NCBI GenBank assembly: GCA_019670725.1
Contig: AP024629.1
Coordinates: 434,001 to 498,000, forward strand
Direction: 5' to 3'
From: Alphaproteobacteria bacterium SO-S41
Lineage (GTDB): Bacteria > Pseudomonadota > Alphaproteobacteria > Micropepsales > Micropepsaceae
DNA length: 64,000 nucleotides
Part shown: positions 43,863 to 58,831 of the stretch, piece after piece
How the letters are laid out: every line of letters starts with the position of its first letter
Numbering within the stretch: position 1 is the stretch's first letter
Translations under genes and position numbers: made by a program
The notes under the pieces: generated by a model
Seen by the model: the letters and a program-made list of their open reading frames with translations, nothing else
Told to the model about the DNA's origin: nothing
Databases searched by the model: none

Positions 43863-46800
43863 ATGCCGAAGCCATTGCGCATTTTCATCTCCTCGCCCGG
43901 CGACGTGTCGGCCGAGCGCCGGCGTTCGGCGCTGGTGGTGGAGAGCCTGAAAAAGGAATTCGCGCGCTTCTTCGACATTACCGCCTATCTCTGGGAACAC
44001 GAGGCGATGCTCGCGACCGGGCATTTCCAGGACGTCATCGAGCCGCCAAGCCAGTCCGACATCGTGGTGCTGATCCTCTGGTCGCGCCTCGGCACGCCGC
44101 TGCCGGTTAATTCGGGCAAGCGCGAATATCGCGGCCTCGACGGCCGCGCGCCGGTGACGGGCACCGAATGGGAATATGAGGACGCGCTCGCGGCCAATCG
44201 CGACAAGGGCGCGCCGGACCTGCTGGTCTATCGCTCCAACCGTGAGCCGCAGATCTCGCTGCGTGATCCCCAGAAGAAGCAGCTGGCCGAAAACCAGTGG
44301 ACGGCGCTAGAGGATTTCTGGTCGCGCTATTTCCAGGCGGGCGGCGTCTTTCTCTCCGCCTATCACGGCTTCGACGACCTCGAAGATTTCGGCGACATGC
44401 TGGAGGCGCATCTGCGCCAGCTCATCCGCAGCCGCATCGAGAAGGGCCGGATCGAGGCGGGCAGCGACGTGCGCGCGACCTGGATGCAGTCGCCGTTCCG
44501 CGGCCTCTCGTCTTATGAATTCGAACACGCCCCGATCTTCTTCGGGCGTGGCGCGGCGCAGCTGAAAGCCGTCGAACAGGTCGTCAAGAACGCCAATGAA
44601 GGCAAGGCTTTCCTGCTGGTGCTGGGTGCCTCCGGTTCGGGCAAGTCCTCGCTGGTCCGCGCGGGCCTCCTCCCCAACCTCTTCGCGCGCGGCGTCGCCG
44701 ATGGCGCGGGCCTGTGGCGGCGGGCCATCTTCAAGCCGGGCGATGCGGACGGCAATCTGTTCCTCGGCCTTGCCAGGACGCTGACCGAGGACCGCGTGAA
44801 GGAAGGGGTCGGCCTGCCGGAAATTCTCGGCCCCGGCGTCACGCTGGAGCAGCTGGAAAATGCGCTGCGCCGTTCGGTCGATGATCCCGGTTTCGTCTTC
44901 ACCCCGGCACTCGGCAAGGTGTCGTCCGAAGCGCGCGCCGCCGGCAAGATCATGGGCCATGAAAGCGCGAAGCTCGCGCTGGTGCTGGATCAGCTCGAAG
45001 AGATCTTTACGGATGCCTCGATCTCGACCGAGGAGCGCAACACCTTCATCCGCCTAATCGGCTCGCTCGCGAAGAGCGGCCAGGTCTGGGTGATCGCGAC
45101 GATGCGCTCCGACTTTTGGCACAAGGCCGCGGCCTCGCCGGAACTGGTGGCGCTGGCCGAAGGGCTCGGCCGCATGGATCTGCTGCCGCCGAGCCAGGCG
45201 GAGCTAGCGGAAATGATCCGCCGTCCCGCCGCCGCCGCGGGCCTCAGCTTCGAGGATCATTCCGAAACGCGCGTCGGCCTCGACGGCGTGATTGCGGAAG
45301 AGGCCTCGCGCGATCCGGGGTCGCTGCCGCTCGTCTCGTTCATGCTCGACGCGCTCTACAAGACGGATGTCGAGAAATCCAAGGGCGCGGTCCTTACCTA
45401 CGGCACCTACGAGGCACTGGGCGGCATCAAGGGCGCGATCGCGACCCGGGCCGACGAGATCCTGAACGCGCAGCCCGCCGACGTTCAGGCGGCGCTGCCC
45501 TCGGTACTGCGGGCCCTCGTTACCGTCGACAGCGACCGCGACCAGAATGCGACGGCCCGTACCGCACCGTTAAATGCGTTCCCGGCGGGTTCGCCCCGCC
45601 GCGCATTGGTTGATGCCTTCCTCGATCCCGCCGCGCGCCTGCTCATCGCCGATGGCGATGGCGGCGAAGCCCGCATCCGCGTCGCGCACGAGGCGCTGAT
45701 CAACCACTGGACCCGCGCCCGCGAACAGATCAATCGCGACCGCCGCGATCTCGAAACCCGCACGCGCCTCGAAGAAGACGAGCAGCTGTGGCGCGCCGCG
45801 CCGGCGGCGGAGAAGCCGGCCCGCCTGCTGGAAGGCCTGGCGCTGGAAGAGGGCAAGGACCTCGTCGTCAAATGGAGCGACGAGCTGCCGCAGTCGCTGA
45901 AGGATTACATTGAGGAAAGCCGCAAGACTGCGAACCTCAAACGCAACCGCCGCACGCGTATCTTGACCGCCGTCGCCGCCGTGATGGCGGTGCTGGCGAT
46001 CGGCGCCGGCGTGCTCGGCATTTTCGCGCTGCGCCAGGAAGCGCTGGCGCAGGCCGAGAGCGAACGCGCACAGGCCGAAAGCGAGCGCGCCAAATCGGCC
46101 GAGGACCAGGCCGAGGAGCGGCTGAAGGATACCCAGCGCGGCAGTGCGCGGCTCGTCGCACGACAGTCCTATCTCGCCTCGCATGGCGGCTATTCGGAGC
46201 TCGCGCTGGCGCTTGCGGTCGAGTCGGTGCGGATCGCGCAACAGGCCGGCGGCGAATTGCCGCTCGCCTCGCTGGCGGCGCTGCAGCATGCGGCGTCGAC
46301 CGACACGATCGTCTCGGTGCTCGCCGATTCCAACGGATCGCTGGGTGCCCTTTCGTTCGGTGCCGATCCCGGCGTCATCTATACCGGCGGCAACGGTACG
46401 CTGACCGTGTGGAACACCTTCCTCGGCACCGAGCGGGCATTCTTCGGTACGAACGAGGTCGGCTTCGTCACCAGCGATGCCGACGACGCGGGCCATTATC
46501 TCGTCAACGCCTACAACGACAAGACGCTGCAGGTCTTCGACGCCTCGACCTTCGAGACCGTGGGCAACATGCTCACCTTCGACGCCGGGTTGACGATGGT
46601 CGAGATCGACCGCAACGGGCGCGAGATCCTGGTCGCCGATGATGCGGGGGCGATCCATTTCATCGACGCCGCTACGCAGCAGCCGATCGCCTCGGAAAAG
46701 GCGCACGATGCGCCGCTCGGCGACATGAAGATCGCGGATAATCTGTCGATCGCCGTGACGGCGGACAGTGCCGGCAAGGCGGTGATCTGGGACCTCGCGA

Positions 46801-49202
46801 CCCATACGCAGCGCGCGGTCATCTATCACGGCACGCAGGAGAGCCCGAGCGCCATCACCGGCGTTGCGATTTCGCCAAGCGGCAATCAGGTCATCCTGAT
46901 CGGCAACGGCTATGCCTCGGTCTATGACAGCGCCGGCACCTTTGTGCAGCAGATCAATATCGACAACGCCTTCCTCTACCGCGTGGTCTACACGCCGGAC
47001 GGGTCGAGCGTAATCTACACCGCCGGCAAGAACGCCTATGCGGCGCGGTCCTCCGACTTCGTCGTCACCAAGACTTTCTCGGGGCATACTTTCGACGTGC
47101 GCGAGCTTTCGCTCTCGTCGGACGGCAAGCGGATGCTGACCGCGGCGGGCGACAACACGCTGCGCCTGTGGGACGTCGATTCCGCGTCCACGCTCCGTAT
47201 CTACCGTTCCCCCAAGGGCAGCATCGCCACCGGCGGCCTCAGCCTCAGCTCCGACGGCAACTACGTCGCTGCGGTGTTCGATGACGGCAACGCGGTCGTC
47301 TGGGCGGTTGAAGGCCTCTCGCCGGCCTCTGCCCGCGTCGTGCACGACTGGAACATCAACTCGATCGTCTGGAGTCCCGACGGCCAATACGTGCTGACCA
47401 CCGCCAACGAATCCGCCGGCGGGCGCGCGGTGCTGTCCGACGTCGAGACGGGGCATCCCGAATTCAGCCTGCCGGCCAGCGACGACCCGCTGCCTGCGGC
47501 CAGCGACATGAGCAGCGCGATCTTCACGCCGGACGGCACCAAGATCGTGACGGGCGACAATCTCGGCCGCATCCGCCTGTGGACGGCGTCGACGGGCGAC
47601 CCGGTCCGGGTCATCGGCCAGGGTCCCGAGGGCTACAACATCAACTGGGTGGTGATGACGCCCGACGGCAAATACGTGCTGGGCACGCGTTACGGCGGCA
47701 TCGGCGTCTATGCGTTCGACAAGACCGAAGCGCCGGAGGAACGCGTCTTCAACGCGCCCAATGCGGCGCTCTTTACCGCGGCGATCAGTCCCGACGGCAC
47801 GCGCGTCGCGACCGGCGCGTCGGACGGGCGGGTGTTCATCTGGGATTTCGCGACCGGCAAGCTGTTGTTCGAGCGGCGCGAGGACCGCAGCCAGATCAAC
47901 TCGGTGAACTTCTCGCCCGACAGCAAGCATCTCGTCACGGCATCGAGCGACCGTACGATCCGGGTGTGGGATGTCGAAACCGGCGCTTCGACGCTGCTGC
48001 TGACCGGCCATGACGATCTGGTGCTGTGGGCGGCCTATAGCGCCGATGGCCAGCGCATCGCCTCGTCCGGGTTCGATGCGACGGTGAAGGTATGGGACGC
48101 CGCAACCGGCGCAGAACTGCTGAGCTATACGGGCCCGGGCAAACCGTTCCGCGTCGCGGTCTTCAATCCCGACGGCACGACACTGGCGGCGGGCGGCGAC
48201 GACTTCCGGCTCTATCTCTGGAAACTGCCGGAGAAGAATTTCGCCAACACGCCGACGGCGGGGCCGATCCTCAAGGCCCAGCTCGACGCCGATGACGGCA
48301 AGATGCTGAAGGAAATGCTGGCCTGGGCGCCGCTGACGGTTTCCAAGCCGCTCAGCCCGACCGACCGGCGCGACAACTTCCTCGAAGCCGATCCTGGCGT
48401 GCGGACGTTCGATCCGCGGGCCGATGCCTGTCACCAGCTCGCCGCCTTCCAGTCCGACCCGCAGCGCCTGGCGCCTGGCGTTCGCGCCGACGATCTCTAT
48501 GGCGTCGATGCGGAAGCGGCGTGCCGTCTAGCGCTGAAAACGACACCGGACGACCCGCGGCTTCATCTTCAGCTGGGCCGGGCGCTGCTGGTGCAGGACA
48601 AGACCGATGAAGGCCGCAAGGAAGTCCAGCTCGCCGTCGATGCGGGCTATCCCGGCGCGATCTACTTCCTCGGCCTCTATCTGACCGATCCGAGCATCCC
48701 CGGCCTCACGACCGACGATGTGAAGCACGGCTTTGAGCTGGTGCGCAAAGCCTGGGACATGGGCCTTGCCGATGCCGGCGACCGGCTCGCACAGTTCACT
48801 CTGTCGGGCCGCAAGACCGACGACGGGCAGGAGATCATCAAGCAGGACGAGCCGGCCGCGATCGCGCTCTACAAGCAGGCCTCGGAAAAGGGCTCGTGGT
48901 ACTCGTCCAATGCGTTGGCGCAGAAGAGCGAGTTCGGCGAGAACGGTGTCACTCAGGACATGCTGGAAGCGCTGTTCTACTATGCGCTGGCCGCTCGTCA
49001 GGTCGAAGTGCAGGGCCTGGTCGAGACGACGGAAACGAAGTGGTCCTCATACCTCTTCTCGCGTCGCGCCTCGATCGCCCGGCAGTTGATCCGTGACGGG
49101 AAAAGCGCCGAGGTCGCAGCGGTCGCCGACCGCGTGAGCGCCTGGAAGATGCCGGCCGACGCGCCTGCGACCCCGGCCGGACCGGCGCCGGCCACGCAAT
49201 AG
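43863..49202 (+). CDS. DUF4062/TIR-like - STAND NTPase (nSTAND1) - TM - WD40 - Sel1 protein
   Basis: 1779 residues. Residues 1-195 are a Rossmann-like DUF4062/TIR-like domain (LRIFISSPGDVSAERR, SDIVVLILWSRLGTP, GTEWEYEDAL). The NTPase at about 215-640 has Walker A GASGSGKSS (Lys261), Walker B ALVLDQLEEIF (Asp376), an arginine sensor region (VWVIATMRSDF) and a winged-helix-like DPGSLPLVSFMLDALYK. A hydrophobic helix spans 700-723, then a Glu/Ala-rich coiled coil. WD40-like blades run from about 827 to 1456; I count 15 by eye, consistent with two propellers. Sel1/TPR-like repeats end the protein. If the helix is real, the WD40 half is periplasmic. The start follows the APH gene divergently; GC content resembles the neighbours. 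Likely a sensor-switch protein of the STAND type. Confidence 0.88.
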   Translation: MPKPLRIFISSPGDVSAERRRSALVVESLKKEFARFFDITAYLWEHEAMLATGHFQDVIEPPSQSDIVVLILWSRLGTPLPVNSGKREYRGLDGRAPVTGTEWEYEDALAANRDKGAPDLLVYRSNREPQISLRDPQKKQLAENQWTALEDFWSRYFQAGGVFLSAYHGFDDLEDFGDMLEAHLRQLIRSRIEKGRIEAGSDVRATWMQSPFRGLSSYEFEHAPIFFGRGAAQLKAVEQVVKNANEGKAFLLVLGASGSGKSSLVRAGLLPNLFARGVADGAGLWRRAIFKPGDADGNLFLGLARTLTEDRVKEGVGLPEILGPGVTLEQLENALRRSVDDPGFVFTPALGKVSSEARAAGKIMGHESAKLALVLDQLEEIFTDASISTEERNTFIRLIGSLAKSGQVWVIATMRSDFWHKAAASPELVALAEGLGRMDLLPPSQAELAEMIRRPAAAAGLSFEDHSETRVGLDGVIAEEASRDPGSLPLVSFMLDALYKTDVEKSKGAVLTYGTYEALGGIKGAIATRADEILNAQPADVQAALPSVLRALVTVDSDRDQNATARTAPLNAFPAGSPRRALVDAFLDPAARLLIADGDGGEARIRVAHEALINHWTRAREQINRDRRDLETRTRLEEDEQLWRAAPAAEKPARLLEGLALEEGKDLVVKWSDELPQSLKDYIEESRKTANLKRNRRTRILTAVAAVMAVLAIGAGVLGIFALRQEALAQAESERAQAESERAKSAEDQAEERLKDTQRGSARLVARQSYLASHGGYSELALALAVESVRIAQQAGGELPLASLAALQHAASTDTIVSVLADSNGSLGALSFGADPGVIYTGGNGTLTVWNTFLGTERAFFGTNEVGFVTSDADDAGHYLVNAYNDKTLQVFDASTFETVGNMLTFDAGLTMVEIDRNGREILVADDAGAIHFIDAATQQPIASEKAHDAPLGDMKIADNLSIAVTADSAGKAVIWDLATHTQRAVIYHGTQESPSAITGVAISPSGNQVILIGNGYASVYDSAGTFVQQINIDNAFLYRVVYTPDGSSVIYTAGKNAYAARSSDFVVTKTFSGHTFDVRELSLSSDGKRMLTAAGDNTLRLWDVDSASTLRIYRSPKGSIATGGLSLSSDGNYVAAVFDDGNAVVWAVEGLSPASARVVHDWNINSIVWSPDGQYVLTTANESAGGRAVLSDVETGHPEFSLPASDDPLPAASDMSSAIFTPDGTKIVTGDNLGRIRLWTASTGDPVRVIGQGPEGYNINWVVMTPDGKYVLGTRYGGIGVYAFDKTEAPEERVFNAPNAALFTAAISPDGTRVATGASDGRVFIWDFATGKLLFERREDRSQINSVNFSPDSKHLVTASSDRTIRVWDVETGASTLLLTGHDDLVLWAAYSADGQRIASSGFDATVKVWDAATGAELLSYTGPGKPFRVAVFNPDGTTLAAGGDDFRLYLWKLPEKNFANTPTAGPILKAQLDADDGKMLKEMLAWAPLTVSKPLSPTDRRDNFLEADPGVRTFDPRADACHQLAAFQSDPQRLAPGVRADDLYGVDAEAACRLALKTTPDDPRLHLQLGRALLVQDKTDEGRKEVQLAVDAGYPGAIYFLGLYLTDPSIPGLTTDDVKHGFELVRKAWDMGLADAGDRLAQFTLSGRKTDDGQEIIKQDEPAAIALYKQASEKGSWYSSNALAQKSEFGENGVTQDMLEALFYYALAARQVEVQGLVETTETKWSSYLFSRRASIARQLIRDGKSAEVAAVADRVSAWKMPADAPATPAGPAPATQ

Positions 49203-49208
49203 GCGCGA

Positions 49209-49826
49209 TCAGCTGAGCACGGCGAGGAAGCTGTCCTCGCCGCCGGCTGCGGGGCGCTCGCCGCTGGCCAGTGCCGGTATATCTTCCGCGGTCACGGCGA
49301 GCGCTGAGCGCTCGCCTCTGGCGTCGATCCACAGCACGGGCAGGCGGCGGAAGAGCGCCAGCATCATCGTGTCGTAGGCGCCGGCCTTCAGCGCGGTCGG
49401 CTCGCCGTCCCAGATGGCGATCACGGCGTCCGAGCGCGCCAGCATTTCGCCGCTGGCGGCGATATAGCCCTCTGTGTCGTCGGCAAGATCGAGCCGGTTC
49501 GGCGTGCAGTTCATCGTCCGCGCCGCCAGCATGAGCCGGCGCAGCGTGTCGGTCGGCGGGCCCTTCGCGAAATCGCGCGCATAGTGACCGGCGGGAAACG
49601 GCAGCGGCGCGAAGAGCTCCCAGCCCAGCGCCAGCGCTGCCTCCGCCGCCATGGTGTCGGCGCCTTCGGCGAGCGAACTCACGCAGATGAACCGCCGGGG
49701 CGCGAGACGGGCCTGAACATGCATCATGACGCGGCGGATATCGGCGGCGATGACGTCGAGGCGTTCAGGATTCAACTTGTGCGGACGATGGCCGGTAACG
49801 CCCAGCGCGAATATGGGAATGGTCAT
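49209..49826 (-). CDS. SLOG-like nucleotide-sensing domain protein
   Basis: 205 residues. FALGVTGHRPHKL opens a Rossmann-like fold, SLAEGADTMAAEAALALGWEL matches the SLOG/LOG-like EGAD helix, and FPAGHYARDF plus DAVIAIWDGEPTALKAGAYDT complete the nucleotide-binding pattern. SLOG domains bind or process nucleotide ligands in predicted conflict systems. It is convergent with the nSTAND gene (6 bp apart) and its ATG overlaps the upstream TPR gene stop as ATGA, so the two are translationally coupled. Confidence 0.75.
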   Translation of the reverse strand: MTIPIFALGVTGHRPHKLNPERLDVIAADIRRVMMHVQARLAPRRFICVSSLAEGADTMAAEAALALGWELFAPLPFPAGHYARDFAKGPPTDTLRRLMLAARTMNCTPNRLDLADDTEGYIAASGEMLARSDAVIAIWDGEPTALKAGAYDTMMLALFRRLPVLWIDARGERSALAVTAEDIPALASGERPAAGGEDSFLAVLS

Positions 49827-51001
49827 GCGACCACGTCTTGCTGGCCGAGCGTGGCGGAAATGCGTTTCGCCTGCGCCTTGGTGCCCTCGATGCTGCCGGT
49901 CAACCAGGCATAGTCGGCGAAGGCGGCGGCATAGACGGCACCCGCCTCATCCGTCTGCCCCGCGATCAACAGGGCCTCGGCACGGCTGACGCGGTCGTAG
50001 TACTCGGCAAGCCCGCCATCCTGCGGAACCAGCGAGGCCTTGGTGAGCGCCTCGTCGCGCAGATCCATCGCGGCGGCCACGGTGCCGGCGATGTTTCGCG
50101 CGAGGTCCACCTCGCCGCGATAGACCGCGGTCGCCGCGGCGTTGACGCCGAGATAGGCGTTGATCTTCTTCCCGCGCTCCCACTGCTTCTTGTAGAGGTC
50201 GTGGGCCTTGTCGAGCGCTTTGGTCTGGCTCTGGTCGCGGTCCCAGCGGCGCTTGTAGATGCCGCCGGCGATCCCCGCGGTTTCGTCGTCATCGCCGTAG
50301 CGCTGCAGCAGTTTGCCGGCGGCGGCGACCGCTTCCTCAAGCTTGCCGGTCCGCGAAAGCACGAGCGCTGCGAGCTGCTGATGGCGCTGGTCGCTGCCAT
50401 AGGCTTCGGCGCAGCGCGCGAGCAGATCACCGGCTTCGGCGGCCTTGCCGCAGGCGATCAGCGACTCCGCGCAGAGCATCGCAAGAAAGCGCGAGGAGAG
50501 CGCATCCTCGCGCCGCGCGACGAGGCCATCGACGGCCGGCTTGTCGCCGTCCTCGATACGGGTCAGCAGATCGACCAGCGCGACGACGCTCCAGCCGGGA
50601 TCGATGCGGTTGTTGAGCTGGACGAGTGCGCCGGCGAATTCATCGCCAGGATCGAGGCTCTCGAACCAGCGCAGCATTTCGTGGACGAGCACCATGGCGA
50701 GCTTGGTGTCGTCCTCGGTGGAATTGTCGAGCGTGTGGCGCACCCCGTTGCCCATGCGCCGCAACGTGTGGGCGAGCTCGCGGCCGATCGTGTCGATCAG
50801 CCGGTGCGACTCGATGGTCATGAGATTGGAGAAGATGTTGGGCGAGGGCTTCTGCCCCAGCCGCGCGATCAGTCCGGCGCACATGCCGTCGAGCATCCGC
50901 GCGCAATAGAAGATCACGCCCTCAGGCGCGCTGGCCGGGGGGATGACGACCAGGCGGCGAACCTGGTCCAGGATGATCTTGCGGTCGGCGGGCGCGGCCA
51001 T
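49823..51001 (-). CDS. TRAFs-binding / TPR-S-like helical repeat protein
   Basis: 392 residues from ATG 51001. Residues about 1-120 are helical (VIFYCARMLDGMCAGLIARL). The C-terminal part has GDDDETAGIAGGIYKRRWDRD, LYKKQWERGKKINAYLGVNA and EAGAVYAAAFADYAWLTGSI, which match the pattern of the MAP3K TRAFs-binding/TPR-S family. These proteins accompany SLOG and trypsin-like genes in predicted conflict loci. It shares a 4-bp overlap with the SLOG gene and is divergent from the pseudoprotease gene across 93 bp. The start is moderately certain; ribosome-binding sequence is weak. Confidence 0.75.
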   Translation of the reverse strand: MAAPADRKIILDQVRRLVVIPPASAPEGVIFYCARMLDGMCAGLIARLGQKPSPNIFSNLMTIESHRLIDTIGRELAHTLRRMGNGVRHTLDNSTEDDTKLAMVLVHEMLRWFESLDPGDEFAGALVQLNNRIDPGWSVVALVDLLTRIEDGDKPAVDGLVARREDALSSRFLAMLCAESLIACGKAAEAGDLLARCAEAYGSDQRHQQLAALVLSRTGKLEEAVAAAGKLLQRYGDDDETAGIAGGIYKRRWDRDQSQTKALDKAHDLYKKQWERGKKINAYLGVNAAATAVYRGEVDLARNIAGTVAAAMDLRDEALTKASLVPQDGGLAEYYDRVSRAEALLIAGQTDEAGAVYAAAFADYAWLTGSIEGTKAQAKRISATLGQQDVVA

Positions 51002-51094
51002 GGCGCGAAGATGGCTGCTGACGCTGTCTGAGACAACCTCGTCTTGATCCGCTCGCGGCGGGCGGACTAGCTTCGGACGCTCGGGGGAACGCCA

Positions 51095-52423
51095 ATGGGC
51101 CAGAAGGCCTTGTCCTTTGCCTGGCCGGTTCTGGCGGTCCTCCTGGCGGCCGGCGGATGGTGGCTGATCCGGGCGCCGGAAGCGGAGACGCCCGCGACCT
51201 ATCGCGCGCAAATGGCGGCGCGGGGCGCGACGGCGCCGGTCGCCGATATCGCGGCGGCGGCGCAGGGAAGCGTCTACCTGGTCACGATCGAGTTGCCGAG
51301 CGGCCGGCGCAGTCCTGTCGGCACGGCCTTCGTCGTCGCGCGCCGGGATGGGACGAAGGTGCTCGCGACCTCGGCGCTGGTCGCGGACCTCTTTCGCCGG
51401 GACCTCCAAGCCAATCCCGATTTCAACGGCGGCCGAATGATGGCGGCGCAGCCGAAGCCGCCGGACTATCCCGCGCTGCGCGTCACCGGTGTCGAGGTCC
51501 ATCCCGCCTGGGACGCGCTGGGCGAGGCGGCGCCCTACTGGTCGGCCTATGGCGTCGCGCTGCTGCTGGTCGATGACCCCGCCCGTCTCGGACCGCCGCT
51601 GGCGCTCGCCCGACGCACGGTCCTCGAGACGCTGAAGGCGGGCGATCCCGTCGTCCTCGTTGGGTATGTCGCCCGCGACCTGCCGCTCGGCGACCTGACC
51701 CGCCCGGTGCCCTCGGCCGAGGCCGGGATCGTCACCGCGCTGACCGGTTTCGACCGGACGCGGGGGCCGGATGCCGCCAATCTGCTGATCCAGTCCTCGC
51801 TGGAGGCGGCCGACGGCGCGGCGGGCAGCCCCATGTTGAACGCGGCCGGCGAGGTGGTCGGGCTCTTCAACGACGGCGACCCCTCGGGGCTGCTCTATGG
51901 GCAGGTACGACCGCGTCCCGCCGATCTGCTGGTCAGCACCGGTGCGCGCGGCGATCTCGTGGCCGCGCTGCTGGACGGAACCGCGGCCTCGGATCTTCCC
52001 GGCATTGTTGCGGCGTGGAGCACGGCGGGACTTGACCGACGCGCCGCGGCGCCGGCTCCCGACCAGCTCGTGCAGCTCAAGGCGCGCGCGGGACCGGATG
52101 CCGATATCGTGATGGTGGCCGAGCGGGAGGGGGCGCTTGTGGCGGCCGATCCCCTGTTCCCTGGCGCCCGCGCCGCCTGGTTCGATTTGGACCTGCCGGG
52201 CCCCGGCCTCTATCTCGCGCTGGCCCGTTCGGAGACCGGCGCGCGTGTCGGCGCGGTCCTGCAAGGCCCCGATGGCGCCATCATCGAGGTCGGAACCGTG
52301 GGCGCGCTGGTCTCAAGCTGCATGGTGCGCAGCGAAGGGCCGGCGTCGCTGCGTCTGGGCGTCGTCGGAGACGGCGGCCGGGTGCGTGTCCAGCTCTACC
52401 GGGCCGCGCGGCCGGGCGGCTGA
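51095..52423 (+). CDS. Membrane-anchored trypsin-like pseudoprotease
   Basis: 442 residues. A signal-anchor helix (AWPVLAVLLAAGGWWLI, about 9-25) has no FHA domain before it. The trypsin-like domain (about 50-265) aligns with the proteases at 52671 and 54698, but all triad positions differ: Leu95 replaces His (TSALVADL against NSHVADI and NAHIAEI), Gly153 replaces Asp (AYGVALL against GFDVALL) and Ala243 replaces Ser (GAAGSP against GASGSP). The last 110 residues form the shared beta domain ending in VQLYRAARPGG. It is probably inactive as a protease and may bind ligands or regulate the other two. It is first of the three tandem paralogues. Confidence 0.82.
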   Translation: MGQKALSFAWPVLAVLLAAGGWWLIRAPEAETPATYRAQMAARGATAPVADIAAAAQGSVYLVTIELPSGRRSPVGTAFVVARRDGTKVLATSALVADLFRRDLQANPDFNGGRMMAAQPKPPDYPALRVTGVEVHPAWDALGEAAPYWSAYGVALLLVDDPARLGPPLALARRTVLETLKAGDPVVLVGYVARDLPLGDLTRPVPSAEAGIVTALTGFDRTRGPDAANLLIQSSLEAADGAAGSPMLNAAGEVVGLFNDGDPSGLLYGQVRPRPADLLVSTGARGDLVAALLDGTAASDLPGIVAAWSTAGLDRRAAAPAPDQLVQLKARAGPDADIVMVAEREGALVAADPLFPGARAAWFDLDLPGPGLYLALARSETGARVGAVLQGPDGAIIEVGTVGALVSSCMVRSEGPASLRLGVVGDGGRVRVQLYRAARPGG

Positions 52424-52670
52424 ACCGGGCTTGAATGGGGGATACCGCCCGCGCTGGCGGCATTGCAATAAAGCGGCCGATCCGCGAGGCTGGCGCTGGT
52501 GCCGGTTGGGGCAGGCGGCGCAAATGTCGCAGGCACCACAGACTCCGCGCGTGCGGCGTCGGTATAGACTATCCGCCGGACGGCAGGCCGCTTCACGGCC
52601 GAGCGGCCGGCCATGAGACATGAATTCATCCGTCGCGCGCGGGCGCGGCGGACCATTTGGGGAGACACGT
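52424..52670. other. 247-bp intergenic region before first FHA-protease gene
   Basis: No gene recognised. Short frames on both strands lack family signatures. The only clear element is the GGGGAG ribosome-binding site at 52660-52665 of the next gene; a separate promoter is likely here because the gap is large for an operon. Confidence 0.5.
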
Positions 52671-54563
52671 ATGGGACTCGTCATCAAGTTCTTGGGCCAG
52701 CCTTATCCGGGCCGCGAGATCACGGTGGACGACGCCAAGAGCGAAGTGAAGTTCGGCCGCGGCATCGACTGCGACGTCGGATTTCCCGAAGACATGGCGA
52801 TCGTCAGCCGCGACCATTTCGCGCTGAAGAAGGAGCTGGGCGGCTACAAGTTCGTCATCAACCGCGAAAAGCCGGTCTTCCTGAATGGCCGCCCGGTCTA
52901 TGACGACCAGGACATGCCGAAATCGGCCGAGATCCAGCTGTCGGGACCGACCGGTCCGAAGCTGCGCGTCGAGCGCACCGATGGCGGGCCGAGCAATCAG
53001 GTCAAGACCGAGATCCTGAAGCCCCAGAAGGACCTCGTCGAGGTCGTCCACCAGACGAAGACGCGCGGCAACCGCACGCTCGGCCTCGTCGCCGGCATCG
53101 CGGCGCTCGTCGCCGTGCTGGGCGGCGGCGGCTATCTGATCGCCAAGAGCCTGCAGGACCAGACCCAGCAGCTCGGCACGGACATGGCCGGGGTCAAGGA
53201 AGACCTGATCACCGTCAAGAACGAGCTGCCGGCGCTGAAGGCCCAGACGGCCGCGCTTGCCGGCCAGGCGCCCGCGAACCTCGCCTCGATCATCGAGAAG
53301 AACAAGAACTCGGTCTATCTCGTCTCGATCCAGCTGCCTTCGGGCACGCGCATGGGCGGCGGTACGGCCTCGGTCGTGCTGCTTCCCGACGGGACCAAGG
53401 CGCTGGCGACCAATAGCCACGTCGCCGATATCCTGAAGGACATCGAAAGCGATCCGCGCCTCGCCGGCGCCTCGCTCGTCGCCGTCCAGCCGAAAGCGCC
53501 GGACTACAAGACGTTGAAGGTCACCCACGTGCTGAAGCACCCGGGCTATGACAAGCTGAACGAGTGGCAGCAGAACTACTTCGTCAAGGCGCACACCTTC
53601 TCGGCGCAGCAGATGGAGTTCGTGCCCGGCTTCGACGTCGCTCTGCTCTATGTCGAGGACCAGACGCAGCTCGGCGATCCCCTGACCTACGCCCCGCGCG
53701 CGGAGATGGAGGCCCTGAAGGCCGGCCAGCAGCTTGTGCTGATCGGTTATCCTTCCGAGCAGCTGAACGGCACCGACCTCGCGCGGCCCGAGCCGACCTC
53801 GCAGACCGGCATCATCACCTCGCTGACGACGTTCTTCCTGTCGCAGGGCGAGCCCAAGGATGACCTGCTGATCCAGCATTCGGCCCCTGCCACGGGCGGC
53901 GCCTCGGGCAGCCCGATGTTCAACAACAAGGGCGAGGTTGTCGCGTTCCTGAACGCCGGCAACATCATCATGTACCAGACGCCGGATGGCGGCACGATGC
54001 GCCAGCCCTCCGCCGCGCTCGTCAACTACGCGCAGCGCGCCGACCTGCTGCTCGACGTTGCCGAGGGCAAGGCTGAAGGCAACATGCCGGCCTACGAAAA
54101 GCAGATGAAGGACGCCGACGACGCGCTGACCAAGTCGCCCGACGTCTTCATCAAGGATCTCGTGGCGATCTTCGGCCAGGAAATGGGCGACCAGAAGAAC
54201 GTCACCCAGGTCGCCGAGACCGAAGCGACGATGGACACGCCGGTGCCGTGGCTGAACGGCCGCCGCGGCGCGGGCTTCGAAGTCGAGATCAAGGAACCCG
54301 GCATCTATGTCTTCGCCGGCTCCTCGCTCGACAAGCGCATCGTGCAGGCGTCGATCTACGAGACGCAGGCGGACGGTTCGATCACCCATATCGACGACGG
54401 CGTCGGCCTGACGCCGCACTCCTTTGTGGTCAGCCCGCGCGAAACGCCCGGCAAGATCTTCGTGGTCATCGCCGACATGTCGGCGGCCGATCCCTCGAAG
54501 GATACGAGCCCTCCGGGCAAGGTGAAGATCTGGGTCTATCGCGGCATTCCCGCGGGCGGCTGA
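52671..54563 (+). CDS. FHA - transmembrane - trypsin-like serine protease, copy 1
   Basis: 630 residues from ATG 52671, behind GGGGAG. The FHA domain (about 1-105) has VKFGRGIDCDVG, the phosphothreonine-binding VSRDHF and an LNGRPVYDD Asn loop. One hydrophobic helix follows at about 145-166 (LVAGIAALVAVLGGGGYLI), then a short coiled stretch. The protease domain has His250 (NSHVADI), Asp322 (GFDVALLYVED) and Ser412 (GGASGSP), so the triad is intact. A C-terminal beta domain ends in VKIWVYRGIPAGG. Predicted FHA inside and protease outside. It may respond to phosphorylated partners of the kinase at 56747. Confidence 0.88.
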   Translation: MGLVIKFLGQPYPGREITVDDAKSEVKFGRGIDCDVGFPEDMAIVSRDHFALKKELGGYKFVINREKPVFLNGRPVYDDQDMPKSAEIQLSGPTGPKLRVERTDGGPSNQVKTEILKPQKDLVEVVHQTKTRGNRTLGLVAGIAALVAVLGGGGYLIAKSLQDQTQQLGTDMAGVKEDLITVKNELPALKAQTAALAGQAPANLASIIEKNKNSVYLVSIQLPSGTRMGGGTASVVLLPDGTKALATNSHVADILKDIESDPRLAGASLVAVQPKAPDYKTLKVTHVLKHPGYDKLNEWQQNYFVKAHTFSAQQMEFVPGFDVALLYVEDQTQLGDPLTYAPRAEMEALKAGQQLVLIGYPSEQLNGTDLARPEPTSQTGIITSLTTFFLSQGEPKDDLLIQHSAPATGGASGSPMFNNKGEVVAFLNAGNIIMYQTPDGGTMRQPSAALVNYAQRADLLLDVAEGKAEGNMPAYEKQMKDADDALTKSPDVFIKDLVAIFGQEMGDQKNVTQVAETEATMDTPVPWLNGRRGAGFEVEIKEPGIYVFAGSSLDKRIVQASIYETQADGSITHIDDGVGLTPHSFVVSPRETPGKIFVVIADMSAADPSKDTSPPGKVKIWVYRGIPAGG

Positions 54564-54584
54564 TCGCCTGACCCATCGATAAGG

Positions 54585-54612
54585 AAAGGCCCGCTTCACG
54601 GCGGGCCTTTTC
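54585..54612 (+). terminator. Rho-independent terminator after FHA-protease copy 1
   Basis: AAAGGCCCGC (54585-54594) pairs perfectly with GCGGGCCTTT (54601-54610), with a 6-nt loop and a TTTT end. It lies 21 bp after the stop, so the second FHA gene is probably transcribed from its own promoter. Confidence 0.88.
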
Positions 54613-54697
54613 ATTCGTGCCTGAGACGCGCCGCCGCAGGGTGAGGCCGTGGCCTCGCTGACGGCGCTCACGTAATCTTGCTCCTCGGGAGAACGTC

Positions 54698-56605
54698 ATG
54701 CCGCTGAAGATCCGCTACCTCAACGGGCCCTATGCCGGGCGCGACATCGACATCGAGGACGACCGCGAGGAGATTCGCTTCGGGCGCGGGCTGGATGCGG
54801 AGATTCCGTTCCCCGAGGACATGACCTCGGTCAGCCACCAGCATTTCGGACTGCAGAAGGAATATGGCGGCTACAAGTTCATCATCAATCGCGAGAAGCC
54901 CGTCTTCCTCGACGGCCGTCCGGTGTTCGACAACCAGGATCTGCCCAAGGTCGCGGAGATCCAGCTCTCGGGTCCGAACGGGCCGCGGCTCAAGATCGAA
55001 CGGCTGGAGGCCTATGGCGCCAATCAGCTGAAGACCGAAATCTTCAAGGCCTCCGACGACGTCGCGAGCGTCATTCACAAGGAGCGCACCAAGTCGCGCA
55101 TCACGTCGGGCACGCTCGCTGCTGTTGCGTTGGCGCTGATCGTCGCGGCGGGTGCGGGCTACTGGCTGTGGAAGGGGACGCAGGAACAGGTCGTCGCCAC
55201 CGGTCAGGCCGTCTCGGAAACGCAGGCGGCTGTTGCGCAGACCCAGAGCGACGTCGCCGCGCTGAAGGAGGAGCTCCCCAGCCTCAAGCAGCAACTTGAG
55301 ACGATGAGCAATTCGTTCGACTTCACCGCACTCATCGAACAGGTGAAGGGCTCGGTCTACCAGGTCGCCGTCGAGCGGCCGAGCGGCACGCTGGTCGCGA
55401 TGGGCACGGCCTGGGTCATCCAGCTCCCCGACGGCACCAAGGCGCTCGGCACGAACGCACATATCGCCGAGATCTATGACGAGGTGCGGAACGATCCCTC
55501 ATGGGGTGGCGCGCGCCTGATCGCGATCGAGCCGAAGGGTCCGACGTATCAGCATGTCGTCATCACCAAGGCGGTGAAGCATCCCGCCTATGACCAGTGG
55601 GCCGAATTCGCCAACGCTTATTACGCTAAGGCACAGGCCGGCACGGTGCGCCAGGTCTTCCTGCCGATCGGCTACGATGTCGGCATCATGTATGTCGACA
55701 AGCCCGAACTGCTCGGCAAGCCGTTGAAGATCGCGCCGGAAGAGACGCTGGAGGAAATGAAGGCGGGCGAGCGGCTGCTGCAGATCGGCTACCCGTCCGA
55801 GAACGTGCTCGGCACCGACATTTCGCGTCCTGAGCCCACGTCGAACTCAGGCGCGATCACCGCGATGACCTCGTTCTTCCTGTCGTCCGGCGATGCCGTC
55901 GATCGCCAGTTCATCCAGCACACCGCCGCAGGCGCCGGCGGTTCGTCGGGCAGTGCGATGTTCAACACCAAGGGCGAAGTCGTCGGCCTGCACAATTCGG
56001 GCAACTACATCTTCATCCAGACAGGTCCCGGCGAGAATGACTACCAGCGCGTGCCGTCGGCGGGGAACATCAACTACGCCCAGCGCGCCGACCTTCTGAC
56101 CGAGCTGATGGAAGGCCGCGCCGAGGAGCGCACCGAGAAGGTCTACAAGCCGATGTGGGCGGCGGCGGAGGCGCAATTCTCCAAGCCGGCCGAGGCGGTC
56201 ATCGAGGACCAGATCGCCTATCTCGGCGCCGCGGTCGGCGGCATCGAAAAGGTCGAGACCTGGAAGACCTTCGACGGCGAGATGGCGAGTGCGGACCCGG
56301 TGCTGGAAGGGCTGCGCGGCGTCTTCTTCGATATCGATCCGCCGGTCGGTTACGCTTATCTCTTCCTCGCGGAGGGCGAGGATCAGCGCAATGTCGCCAT
56401 CGCGGTCTTCCAGAAGGATTCGAGCGAGATTTTCGGGATCGGCAGCCGCGGCTCGTTCTTCTCGAGCTACACGATCTACTACGACGAGACGATGCCGATC
56501 AGGCTCGCCGTGTTCGACGACTTCGCCGGCAATGCGTCGGACGACAAGCGCCCGCCCGGCAAGATCAAGCTGACCGTCTATCGCGCGCCGCTGCCGAGCG
56601 GTTAG
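54698..56605 (+). CDS. FHA - transmembrane - trypsin-like serine protease, copy 2
   Basis: 635 residues. The FHA domain (about 1-105) carries IRFGRGLDAEI, VSHQHF and LDGRPVFDN. A transmembrane helix lies at about 142-163 (LAAVALALIVAAGAGYWLW). The protease triad is His255 (NAHIAEI), Asp327 (GYDVGIMYVD) and Ser417 (GSSGSAMF). The C-terminal beta domain ends in IKLTVYRAPLPSG. It is a diverged tandem copy of the gene at 52671, sharing about 40-50% identity by eye in the FHA part. It begins 86 bp after a terminator, and a ribosome-binding CGGGAG precedes the ATG. Confidence 0.88.
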   Translation: MPLKIRYLNGPYAGRDIDIEDDREEIRFGRGLDAEIPFPEDMTSVSHQHFGLQKEYGGYKFIINREKPVFLDGRPVFDNQDLPKVAEIQLSGPNGPRLKIERLEAYGANQLKTEIFKASDDVASVIHKERTKSRITSGTLAAVALALIVAAGAGYWLWKGTQEQVVATGQAVSETQAAVAQTQSDVAALKEELPSLKQQLETMSNSFDFTALIEQVKGSVYQVAVERPSGTLVAMGTAWVIQLPDGTKALGTNAHIAEIYDEVRNDPSWGGARLIAIEPKGPTYQHVVITKAVKHPAYDQWAEFANAYYAKAQAGTVRQVFLPIGYDVGIMYVDKPELLGKPLKIAPEETLEEMKAGERLLQIGYPSENVLGTDISRPEPTSNSGAITAMTSFFLSSGDAVDRQFIQHTAAGAGGSSGSAMFNTKGEVVGLHNSGNYIFIQTGPGENDYQRVPSAGNINYAQRADLLTELMEGRAEERTEKVYKPMWAAAEAQFSKPAEAVIEDQIAYLGAAVGGIEKVETWKTFDGEMASADPVLEGLRGVFFDIDPPVGYAYLFLAEGEDQRNVAIAVFQKDSSEIFGIGSRGSFFSSYTIYYDETMPIRLAVFDDFAGNASDDKRPPGKIKLTVYRAPLPSG

Positions 56606-56630
56606 GGCGGTTCTGACGCCAAACCACTCT

Positions 56631-56715
56631 CGTCATGACCGCCCTTGAGGTGGTCATCCAGGGCAAGCGGCAGTGCGGTTGCACCTGGATGGCCGGGTCA
56701 AGCCCGGCCATGACG
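56631..56715. repeat. Intergenic palindromic repeat, family A copy 2
   Basis: Arms at 56631-56662 and 56684-56715 match inversely at 25 of 32 positions. The right arm CCTGGATGGCCGGGTCAAGC plus CCGGCCATGACG is nearly the same as the arms at 22711-22789. It lies between the convergent protease and kinase genes. Confidence 0.78.
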
Positions 56716-56746
56716 ATCATGTGAGAGACAAAGGCAGAAACCTGAT

Positions 56747-58831
56747 CTAACCCGCTTTCAAATTCGCCTGCTCGGCATAGGCGCGGATCTGCTCGAAGCG
56801 GTGCGCGGCGGTCTCGACATCGCCGAGCCGCTCCTCGGCGGGGGCGAGCATTTCGCGCACCAAAGTGAGGAAGCGGATTTCGGCTTCGGAGCGCTCAACC
56901 TCCTTCGCACCGCCGAACCAGCCCTTCTTTTTGGGCGCGGGATCGGGGATGGAATCGCGGCCCTTCTCGGGGCGCGCGCCCGAGAACCACTCCCACGCCA
57001 TGATGCCCAGCGGAAACATGTCGAGCTTGGGGTCGGCTGACTTGGTCGATCCCTGCTCGGGCGGGGCATAGCCTCTGGTGCCCGCACCGCCCTGGAAGTT
57101 CGGCAGGACGAGTCCCGCGACATGGGCGATGCCGAAGTCGATGAGGATCGGCGCGCCGGCATCGGTGACGACAACGTTTTCCGGCTTGAGATCGCGATGG
57201 ATGACGCCGCCGCGATGCAGCGCGCCGACGCCGTGACAAATCATCGCCATGTAGTTGCAGATGCGGTCGAGGCCCTTGACCGAGCCTTCGGAAATGATGG
57301 CGCGGAGCTGACGGCCCGAAACGAATTGCTGGACGATATAGGGATTGCCGAGCGCGTCGCGCCCGATCGCGTAGACTTCGGCGACGCCCGGGTGGCGGGC
57401 GCGGGCGGCGGCCTCGATCTCCAGGCGCAGCGAATCGAGGAAGGTGTCGCGGGTCGCGCGGTCATAGACGGCGTCAAGCTGCAGCAGCTTCAGCGCGACA
57501 TCCTTGCCGCGCTGCAGGTCGAAGGCGCGATAGACCGTGCCGAACGAGCCTGAGCCCAGCTCCTCGCGGATGAAATAGCCCGACAGCGCCTCGTCTGGCC
57601 GCCAGCCGATCGCGCGGCCGGCTTCCTCGGAGACGCCTTCCTCGACGCCGTAGCGCGCCATCGCTTCGGACAGCGTGCGCAGATACCGGGTGAGGCCGCG
57701 GGCGCGGCAGCGCTTTACCGCGAGCAGCAAGGCGGCGGACGCATCGCCGGTGCGATCCTGGTCGCGGTAGAGGTCGGCGGCGAGCAGGCGCGCCTGGATC
57801 TCGACATCGGGCACGTCGATATAGGTGAGCTGCTGCAAGGCGCTTTCAGCGAGTTCCAGCGCGCGCTTGGGATCGTCCTTGCGCAGGGTCTCGGCTTCGA
57901 TGAGATCGAGCAGCAGCCTTTCGAACTCGGCGCCTCCTGCCGGCAGCAAGGCACGCGCTTCCGACAGCGCCGCCATCGCGCCCTTGGTATCGCCGCTTCC
58001 CGCTAGCGTGTCGGCCTTGTCCTTCAGGCAGAAGAAGATGATGCCGCCGAGCCCATTGGCCTTGGCGAGCGCGAGCCCTTCGTCGAGCTTCGCGAGCGCT
58101 TCCGACGTCTTGCCCTCGGCAGCGAGGACGCGGCCGACATCGTTCAGCAATTTCGCCTCGCCGCGCACGTCGCCCAACTGCCGCGCGAGGAGAAGGTCAT
58201 TGGTGAAATAGTGCAGCGCATCGCCGTAGCGGCCGGACTGGAAGGACAGGCGGCCGAGATTGCCGAGGGTGATGGCGATGCCCTGGCGGTCGCCCAGCAC
58301 CGTCTTGTCGGCGAGCGAGCGGGCATAGGCGCCGAGCGCATGATCGATCTGGCCGAGCGTCATGTAGCAGGTGCCGAGCGAGTCGTTCACCTGCGCGGAC
58401 CCCGCCACATTGCCGAGCTTGGTGAAGCCGTCGGCGGCGGCGAGCAGGTCCTTGACCGCGCTCTGCATGTCCACCCGGCGCATCGCGACGAGCGCACGGA
58501 GATGGAGAGCGCGGGGACGCGCGGCTTCTTCCGAACCGCCGCTTTCGATCACAGGTTCGATCAGGGCGAGCGCGGCAGTCTCGCCGCCGACGCCGCGCAA
58601 TTCGCACATCGCGAGCTCCAGCGCTGCGGCGACCGCGAGCCGGGGTTCCTCGCGCAGCTTGGTGAGATCGTCGCGCGCCTCGGCGAAACGGCCGAGCTGG
58701 ACGAGGGCGGCGGCCCGCGCGAAGCGCTCGTCGCTATTGCTCGGCGAAATGCCCGCCAGCTCCGCGAACTTGGCGGCGTGCAGCTTTTCCTCGACCGGCC
58801 CGTCGATGAGATCGACCGTCTTGATCCACAT
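56747..58831 (-). CDS. TPR - serine/threonine protein kinase
   Basis: 694 residues. The N-terminal 410 residues are TPR-like helical repeats (for example AARPRALHLRALVAMRRVDM and TLGNLGRLSFQSGRYGDALH). The Hanks-type kinase follows: GSGSFG loop from Gly426, Lys448 in VALKLL, HRDLKPEN with catalytic Asp547, DFG at Asp565 and APPEQG after the activation loop. The kinase at the C terminus, TPRs first, is the reverse of the most common arrangement. No membrane helix is visible. It is convergent with the second FHA-protease gene and is a good candidate to phosphorylate its partner for FHA recognition. Confidence 0.9.
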   Translation of the reverse strand: MWIKTVDLIDGPVEEKLHAAKFAELAGISPSNSDERFARAAALVQLGRFAEARDDLTKLREEPRLAVAAALELAMCELRGVGGETAALALIEPVIESGGSEEAARPRALHLRALVAMRRVDMQSAVKDLLAAADGFTKLGNVAGSAQVNDSLGTCYMTLGQIDHALGAYARSLADKTVLGDRQGIAITLGNLGRLSFQSGRYGDALHYFTNDLLLARQLGDVRGEAKLLNDVGRVLAAEGKTSEALAKLDEGLALAKANGLGGIIFFCLKDKADTLAGSGDTKGAMAALSEARALLPAGGAEFERLLLDLIEAETLRKDDPKRALELAESALQQLTYIDVPDVEIQARLLAADLYRDQDRTGDASAALLLAVKRCRARGLTRYLRTLSEAMARYGVEEGVSEEAGRAIGWRPDEALSGYFIREELGSGSFGTVYRAFDLQRGKDVALKLLQLDAVYDRATRDTFLDSLRLEIEAAARARHPGVAEVYAIGRDALGNPYIVQQFVSGRQLRAIISEGSVKGLDRICNYMAMICHGVGALHRGGVIHRDLKPENVVVTDAGAPILIDFGIAHVAGLVLPNFQGGAGTRGYAPPEQGSTKSADPKLDMFPLGIMAWEWFSGARPEKGRDSIPDPAPKKKGWFGGAKEVERSEAEIRFLTLVREMLAPAEERLGDVETAAHRFEQIRAYAEQANLKAG

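What the first reader, a model, noticed from the sequence alone, without database searches (positions are those of the whole stretch)
43863..58831. Putative membrane-spanning STAND / SLOG / protease / kinase conflict locus
Seven genes combine a DUF4062/TIR-like-STAND-WD40 protein, a SLOG protein coupled to a TRAFs-binding/TPR-S-like protein, three trypsin-like membrane proteins and a TPR-Ser/Thr kinase. From memory, SLOG, TPR-S, trypsin and STAND domains co-occur in predicted NTP-dependent bacterial conflict systems. I do not know of a described system with this exact set, with the WD40 and protease parts outside the inner membrane and FHA domains inside. The genes form convergent and divergent pairs, not one operon, so functional unity is inferred.
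Basis: partly seen in the sequence, partly recalled or inferred. Interest (0 to 1): 0.88.

Follow-up and report, generated by a model that had tools for sequence, protein, structure and literature searches.

The report
Membrane-spanning kinase, sensor and protease cluster
A bacterial gene cluster combines an ATP-driven receptor, nucleotide-sensor-type proteins, a protein kinase and membrane-anchored proteases that point outwards; its core recurs as a unit in unrelated bacteria, so it looks like a real and apparently undescribed signalling system, possibly defensive, whose function is untested.

Summary
Window 43863-58831 encodes seven genes: DUF4062-like/nSTAND1/TM/WD40/Sel1; SLOG; TPR-S with a DUF4145-like N-terminus; three trypsin-fold membrane proteins; and a TPR-Ser/Thr kinase. 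One correction: the first trypsin-like protein (51095-52423) has lost all three catalytic residues and has no FHA domain. Only the next two are FHA-TM-protease proteins with an intact triad.

The order STAND/SLOG/TPR-S/FHA-proteases/kinase recurs in four other species of the genus, and SLOG and TPR-S are fused in two of them. Outside the genus, FHA-TM-protease plus TPR-kinase, often with TPR-S, recurs in other Alphaproteobacteria, Gammaproteobacteria and Planctomycetota. The kinase lies within 4 kb in 10 of 13 Pseudomonadota lineages (0.09 expected), and in several it is the genome's only kinase. In a sister genus the trio occupies a site that is empty in a relative.

Partner genes elsewhere (TIR, SLOG, nSTAND1, CorA-like, RyR) are typical of nucleotide-centred conflict systems. 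Against defence: fixed location in the genus, no defence island, no PADLOC system match. Best reading: an NTP- and phosphorylation-controlled, inside-out periplasmic protease system, probably for conflict or envelope stress. New variant of a known kind. Function is inferred.

The parts
43863..49202 (+). DUF4062-like domain / nSTAND1 NTPase / TM helix (res. 697-725) / WD40 repeats / Sel1-TPR C-terminus, 1779 aa
   Evidence: Pfam nSTAND1 3e-83 and WD40; DUF4062 0.0042, Sel1 3e-8; Walker A GASGSGKS at 255; TM. The only nSTAND1 of the genome.
49209..49826 (-). SLOG-fold protein, 205 aa
   Evidence: AlphaFold model pLDDT 93.4; Foldseek YpsA 2nx2 E 3.7e-7, DprA, ShosA 8zva, TRPM2; the fused orthologue hits Pfam YAcAr 4.6e-4
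49823..51001 (-). TPR-S protein with DUF4145-like N-terminal domain, 392 aa; overlaps the SLOG gene by 4 bp
   Evidence: Pfam TPR-S 9e-16, DUF4145 3e-5; only TPR-S of the genome; fused to SLOG in two relatives
51095..52423 (+). N-terminally anchored pseudoprotease (trypsin fold, no FHA, H/D/S replaced by L/G/A), 442 aa; absent at this place in the four other genus genomes
   Evidence: Trypsin_2 6e-11; alignment columns; gene maps
52671..54563 (+). FHA-TM-trypsin-fold protease 1 with C-terminal beta domain, 630 aa, triad H250/D322/S412
   Evidence: Trypsin_2 2e-15, FHA 6e-5, model with HtrA/DegP-like protease domain, triad
54698..56605 (+). FHA-TM-trypsin-fold protease 2, 635 aa, intact triad
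   Evidence: Trypsin_2 5e-11; 42% identical to protease 1; triad
56747..58831 (-). TPR - Ser/Thr protein kinase, 694 aa, HRDLKPEN and DFG motifs present
   Evidence: Pkinase 7e-35 and TPR_12 1.6e-14; motifs; one of five kinases in the genome

Best explanation
This is one lineage-specific version of a conserved membrane-spanning signalling system whose effector is a periplasmic HtrA-like serine protease. Proposed flow: the nSTAND1 receptor, with its WD40 part outside, binds an envelope-side ligand and oligomerises with ATP inside. Its DUF4062-like domain and the SLOG/TPR-S pair relay the event, probably through a nucleotide such as an NAD-derived one, to the TPR-kinase. Phosphorylation then controls assembly of the FHA-TM-proteases through their cytosolic FHA domains, switching proteolysis on outside the inner membrane to stop the cell or remove the threat. 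The pseudoprotease would be a decoy or brake. Shown here: gene set, domains, topology by sequence, conserved linkage, fusion, cassette behaviour. Inferred: order of signalling, ligand, phosphorylation of any partner, biological purpose. I put about 0.8 on one functional system with the protease as output, and about 0.5 on conflict or defence as its purpose.
For: Same gene order in G001-G004, with flanking genes conserved. SLOG and TPR-S fused in one frame in two species. FHA-TM-protease next to TPR-kinase in Shewanella, Rhizobium terricola, Bauldia, Methylocapsa, other Hyphomicrobiales, gammaproteobacterial and planctomycete MAGs: 10 of 13 Pseudomonadota lineages within 4 kb against 0.09 expected from kinase counts, including several genomes with a single kinase. 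The protease-TPR-S-kinase trio is present in G009 and missing at the colinear site in G033. TPR-S lies in the same cluster as the protease also in gammaproteobacteria. Related loci add nSTAND1, TIR, CorA-like and RyR proteins. Triad H/D/S invariant in 21 aligned proteases. In the STAND protein the cytosolic half is 86-94% identical between species but the WD40 parts 46-83%, as expected for a fixed engine with a diverging sensor.
Against: No defence island: neighbours are hut, RND efflux, wax-ester and transglutaminase-type genes. Fixed place in all five genus members. No plasmid or phage carriers. The FHA Ser and Asn that usually touch phosphothreonine vary between members, so phospho-binding is not certain. 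Two other FHA-protease copies in the genome stand alone in metabolic surroundings. Phycisphaerales versions lack a nearby kinase. The tests ignore shared ancestry among kinase-linked loci.
Confidence: 0.6

Rival explanations
1. A housekeeping envelope-stress or quality-control system: a phosphorylation-controlled HtrA-type protease that handles damaged periplasmic proteins, with STAND-WD40 as a stress sensor, not a conflict system.
For: Protease domain is HtrA/DegP-like; cluster fixed in all five genus members with housekeeping flanks; kinase identity across species (80-84%) equals that of the neighbouring transglutaminase (78-83%); no defence island.
Against: Rare and patchy: 0 of 397 other phylum genomes and 2 of 384 class genomes besides the own one for TPR-S; cassette presence/absence in a sister genus; SLOG, TIR, nSTAND1, CorA-like and RyR company is unusual for a quality-control system.
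Confidence: 0.3
2. Anti-phage abortive-infection system proper: phage attack at the envelope or in the cytosol triggers the STAND/SLOG/TPR-S/kinase relay and the proteases kill the cell by cleaving periplasmic proteins. (A narrower form of the best explanation, so the two confidences overlap.)
For: Domain repertoire matches predicted nucleotide-centred conflict systems (PMC7159879, PMC8195603, PMC9503650); PADLOC candidate PDC-S60 matches the STAND N-terminus at 2e-6; trypsin-like proteases act as activating partners in tested defence systems (PMC12799240).
Against: No PADLOC system match, no defence neighbours, no mobile carriers; kinase matches to PD-T4-6/MADS cover only the kinase domain.
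Confidence: 0.4
3. Chance or loose neighbourhood: seven genes that happen to adjoin.
For: Genes on both strands, no single operon; STAND and SLOG are not in every related locus.
Against: Conserved order in five species, gene fusion, cross-phylum linkage (P about 5e-21 under a random-placement model) and cassette behaviour.
Confidence: 0.05

Closest known systems
STAND/trypsin conflict systems of Kaur et al. 2020/2021 (VMAP ternary, iSTAND, NucA-trypsin, EAD systems; PMC7159879, PMC8195603)
   Same: NTP-dependent STAND proteins, trypsin-like peptidases, TIR/SLOG-type nucleotide domains, kinases and FHA listed as components; inactive trypsins are common there too; nSTAND1 was defined in the 2021 paper
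   Different: No MoxR, vWA, VMAP, EAD or NucA in the Pfam scans here; protease is on an FHA-TM protein with the protease outside; dedicated TPR-kinase and TPR-S; no system with this set was found in the passages read
TPR-S systems / metazoan ASK signalosome (Burroughs & Aravind 2020; paper not held, content from memory; ASK link stated in PMC8195603)
   Same: TPR-S protein coupled to SLOG and associated with a Ser/Thr kinase; two relatives hit Pfam MAP3K_TRAF_bd
   Different: Kinase is a separate gene with its own TPRs; a DUF4145-like domain precedes TPR-S; output is a membrane protease
Thoeris (TIR + SLOG)
   Same: SLOG as a likely sensor of NAD-derived signals; TIR genes in some related loci
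   Different: No SIR2 effector; the window SLOG is free-standing and next to TPR-S; the TIR-like part is a weak DUF4062 match
Type III CRISPR CorA-type membrane effectors
   Same: CorA-like proteins sit inside related loci (PADLOC CorA 5e-13)
   Different: No CRISPR genes seen in those loci; no CorA in the window
HtrA/DegP/DegS proteases
   Same: Protease fold and periplasmic placement
   Different: FHA and TM at the N-terminus, no PDZ hit, kinase-linked
Protease-activated nuclease pairs in Hachiman/AVAST/Lamassu (PMC12799240)
   Same: Trypsin-like protease as part of a multi-gene immune system, one of them STAND-based
   Different: Those proteases are fused to defence enzymes and cut a partner nuclease; none here

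Membership tests
nSTAND1 NTPase | nSTAND1 profile over cut-off with P-loop | tested here: met
   E 3e-83, 281 bits versus cut-off 27.1; GASGSGKS
DUF4062 / TIR-like domain | Profile over cut-off | tested here: inconclusive
   17.7 bits versus 24.7 for the window protein; a related nSTAND1 protein in R. terricola and a separate TIR/DUF4062 protein in Bauldia pass (27.5, 27.6)
SLOG superfamily | SLOG Rossmann-like fold | tested here: met
   Model pLDDT 93 matches YpsA, DprA, ShosA
SLOG superfamily | Nucleotide binding or hydrolysis | not testable with these tools
   Needs biochemistry
TPR-S family | TPR-S profile over cut-off | tested here: met
   58.7 bits versus 27.6
FHA domain | FHA profile / fold | tested here: met
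   16 of 18 members hit PF00498 (window 23.7 bits versus 20.7); profile hits solved FHA structures
FHA domain | Phosphothreonine-contact residues | tested here: inconclusive
   Arg invariant; Ser is Ser/Gly/Ala and the Asn varies
Chymotrypsin-fold serine protease (S1/HtrA-like) | H-D-S triad | tested here: met
   Invariant in all 21 aligned FHA-proteases including P0005 and P0006; NOT met in P0004 (L/G/A)
Eukaryotic-type Ser/Thr kinase | Catalytic motifs | tested here: met
   HRDLKPEN, DFG, Pkinase 7e-35
Thoeris | TIR protein plus SIR2-SLOG effector | tested here: not met
   No SIR2 hit in any of the seven proteins
VMAP/vWA-MoxR or NucA-trypsin conflict systems | MoxR, vWA, VMAP or NucA genes | tested here: not met
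   No such hits in the seven proteins
PD-T4-6 / MADS kinase defence | Full-length family match and partner genes | tested here: not met
   Matches confined to the kinase domain; MADS6 112.8 bits versus cut-off 460
Anti-phage defence system | Protection against phage | not testable with these tools
   Needs phage challenge

The most novel reading that the evidence does not exclude
A previously undescribed class of inside-out immune or stress system: a cytosolic nucleotide/STAND signal is passed through a TPR-S/SLOG sensor and a Ser/Thr kinase, resembling the animal ASK signalosome, to FHA-tethered membrane proteases that act as executioners outside the inner membrane.
Probability: 0.3. Interest if true: 0.85.

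Novelty: new variant of a known kind. Interest (0 to 1): 0.62.

Why it matters
It gives a testable multi-gene system in which kinase signalling inside the cell appears wired to protease domains outside the inner membrane, with STAND and nucleotide-sensor partners. It would add an effector compartment (the periplasm) to predicted nucleotide-centred conflict systems and offers a bacterial setting for TPR-S next to a Ser/Thr kinase, the pairing found in animal ASK kinases. A cultured carrier (Shewanella ulleungensis JCM 32305, locus L078) makes it accessible.

Tried and rejected
Pfam DUF4062 search of the own genome gave nothing over threshold; the domain call rests on weaker hits and relatives. 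Plasmid and phage/virus carriage was sought and not found (the viral scan gave only short trypsin-motif matches). A defence-island reading of the window was tested and dropped. TPR-S in 385 class genomes and FHA-protease in 398 phylum genomes gave almost nothing beyond the family, so prevalence is low. Many trypsin-only hits in the genome-wide scan (Opitutaceae, Lentisphaeria, Hirschia and others) lack the FHA part and were left out of the statistics. Phycisphaerales FHA-proteases (about 1100-1270 aa) are a different architecture without an adjacent kinase; they were kept in the all-lineage test as negatives. Foldseek with the full FHA-protease model listed only protease matches in the top 50, so FHA was settled by sequence profile instead. 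The paper defining TPR-S (J Bacteriol 2020) is not held, so I cannot exclude that it already shows such a neighbourhood.
Full report
WHAT IS THERE. The window lies at 434001-498000 of a single 4.44 Mb contig. It comes from an alphaproteobacterium whose close relatives are unnamed metagenome-assembled genomes. Seven genes fill 43863-58831. Pfam and structure work give: nSTAND1 with WD40 and Sel1 repeats and a weak DUF4062 N-terminus; a SLOG-fold protein; a TPR-S protein with a DUF4145-like N-terminus; three trypsin-fold proteins; and a TPR-kinase. SLOG was nearly invisible to Pfam, but its model (pLDDT 93) matches YpsA, DprA, ShosA and the TRPM2 channel structures. FHA was weak in single proteins, but 16 of 18 aligned N-terminal domains hit PF00498 and the profile hits solved FHA domains of Rv1747, GarA and OdhI.

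TOPOLOGY AND ACTIVITY. One TM helix follows a basic stretch in the STAND protein (697-725) and in both FHA-proteases (135-161, 133-158). This puts nSTAND1 and FHA inside and WD40 and protease outside; it is a prediction. H250, D322 and S412 are invariant in 21 aligned FHA-proteases, and the protease domain resembles HtrA/DegP. The first trypsin-like gene is different: no FHA, and L/G/A at the triad. It is a pseudoprotease and is missing at this place in the four sister species. The kinase keeps HRDLKPEN and DFG, and nSTAND1 its P-loop.

CONSERVED UNIT IN THE GENUS. The order STAND, SLOG, TPR-S, FHA-proteases, kinase, flanked by the same efflux/TetR genes and transglutaminase genes, recurs in G001, G003 and G004, and in G002 across two contigs. 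In G004 and G002 SLOG and TPR-S form one continuous reading frame, which is strong evidence that they work together. In the STAND protein the cytosolic half is 86-94% identical between species while the WD40 segments are 46-83% identical.

CONSERVED CORE BEYOND THE GENUS. In sister genera the protease, TPR-S and kinase genes adjoin (G006, G009, G040). G033 carries the same flanks as G009, with the left flank followed directly by the next conserved gene and the trio absent, so the trio comes or goes as a cassette. A genome-wide scan found FHA-TM-protease loci in Shewanella, Rhizobium, Bauldia, Methylocapsa, other Hyphomicrobiales, gammaproteobacterial MAGs and Planctomycetota. A TPR-kinase adjoins in most. 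Using kinase counts per genome and one entry per lineage, 10 of 13 Pseudomonadota lineages have it within 4 kb where 0.09 are expected; over all 21 lineages it is 12 against 0.57. In G444, G445, G454, G462 and G474 one kinase was found genome-wide, and in each the related locus carries one beside the protease. The model assumes random placement and independent lineages, so the P values are indicative only.

COMPANY. Related loci replace or add partners: nSTAND1 proteins in R. terricola, Bauldia and L094; a TIR/DUF4062 protein in Bauldia; TIR-WD40 and TIR proteins and a SLOG protein in Shewanella; CorA-like membrane proteins in gammaproteobacterial loci and one planctomycete; RyR-TrkA_N beside the R. 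terricola locus; a TPR-S/cyclase protein in G006. TIR, SLOG, STAND, kinase, FHA and trypsin domains are listed for nucleotide- and NTP-dependent conflict systems (PMC7159879, PMC8195603, PMC9503650); that CorA and RyR belong to the same circle is from memory and from the PADLOC CorA models. YpsA-like SLOG domains are described in PMC9503650 as including sensors of cADPR-type signals.

WHAT SPEAKS AGAINST DEFENCE. The window neighbours scanned are metabolic or transport genes and no PADLOC system was matched. No plasmid or virus carries close relatives. The cluster is fixed in the genus and evolves at about the pace of its flanks apart from SLOG, protease 2 and the WD40 part. Two further FHA-protease genes in the genome have metabolic neighbours. 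FHA contact residues other than Arg vary.

MECHANISM. I judge most likely that the STAND receptor and the SLOG/TPR-S pair set a threshold, the kinase converts it to phosphorylation, and the FHA domains gather or activate the proteases whose action is outside the inner membrane. Steps after 'these genes belong together and the protease is the likely output' are inference. Defence or other conflict (about one half) and envelope stress (about one third) both remain open.

NOVELTY. In the held literature I found no system combining FHA-TM-protease, TPR-kinase and TPR-S, but the paper defining TPR-S could not be read. I therefore rate it a new variant of a known kind, predicted nucleotide/NTP-dependent conflict systems, and not a member of any named one.

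Noticed in passing
window:20563-22674 (+): A 703-aa TIR-TPR protein (TIR_2 2.7e-10, ThsB_TIR 4e-9) about 21 kb left of the finding; possibly another conflict-type gene of the same genome.
   Followed up: no
L072:6243-7961 (+): TPR-S plus SLOG-like segment plus class III adenylate/guanylate cyclase in one protein beside the kinase/protease/TPR-S locus of a sister genus, with a MAP3K TRAFs-binding hit.
   Followed up: partly
L055:8193-10046 and L056:9263-11053 (G000:C1 4290205-4292046 and 1095263-1097038): Two more FHA-TM-protease genes in the same genome with metabolic neighbours and no adjacent kinase, so the protein can also stand alone.
   Followed up: partly
L077:8418-9899, L078:8218-9741, L080:8361-9839, L095:14826-16274: CorA-like membrane proteins inside related loci; the first two match PADLOC models of CorA-type effectors, the L095 one hits Pfam CorA weakly; the L080 one is placed by position and size only.
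   Followed up: partly
L059:7973-9616 and L060:9263-10945: Nearest SLOG relatives outside this system are longer proteins with a DUF4231 domain, a common partner of SLOG in conflict proteins (from memory).
   Followed up: no
L079:1386-3248: RyR domain plus TrkA_N protein next to the Rhizobium terricola locus.
   Followed up: no
L049:11286-11804 and L050:679-1188: A GNAT-like acetyltransferase gene sits between FHA-protease genes in two sister species (family named by eye).
   Followed up: no
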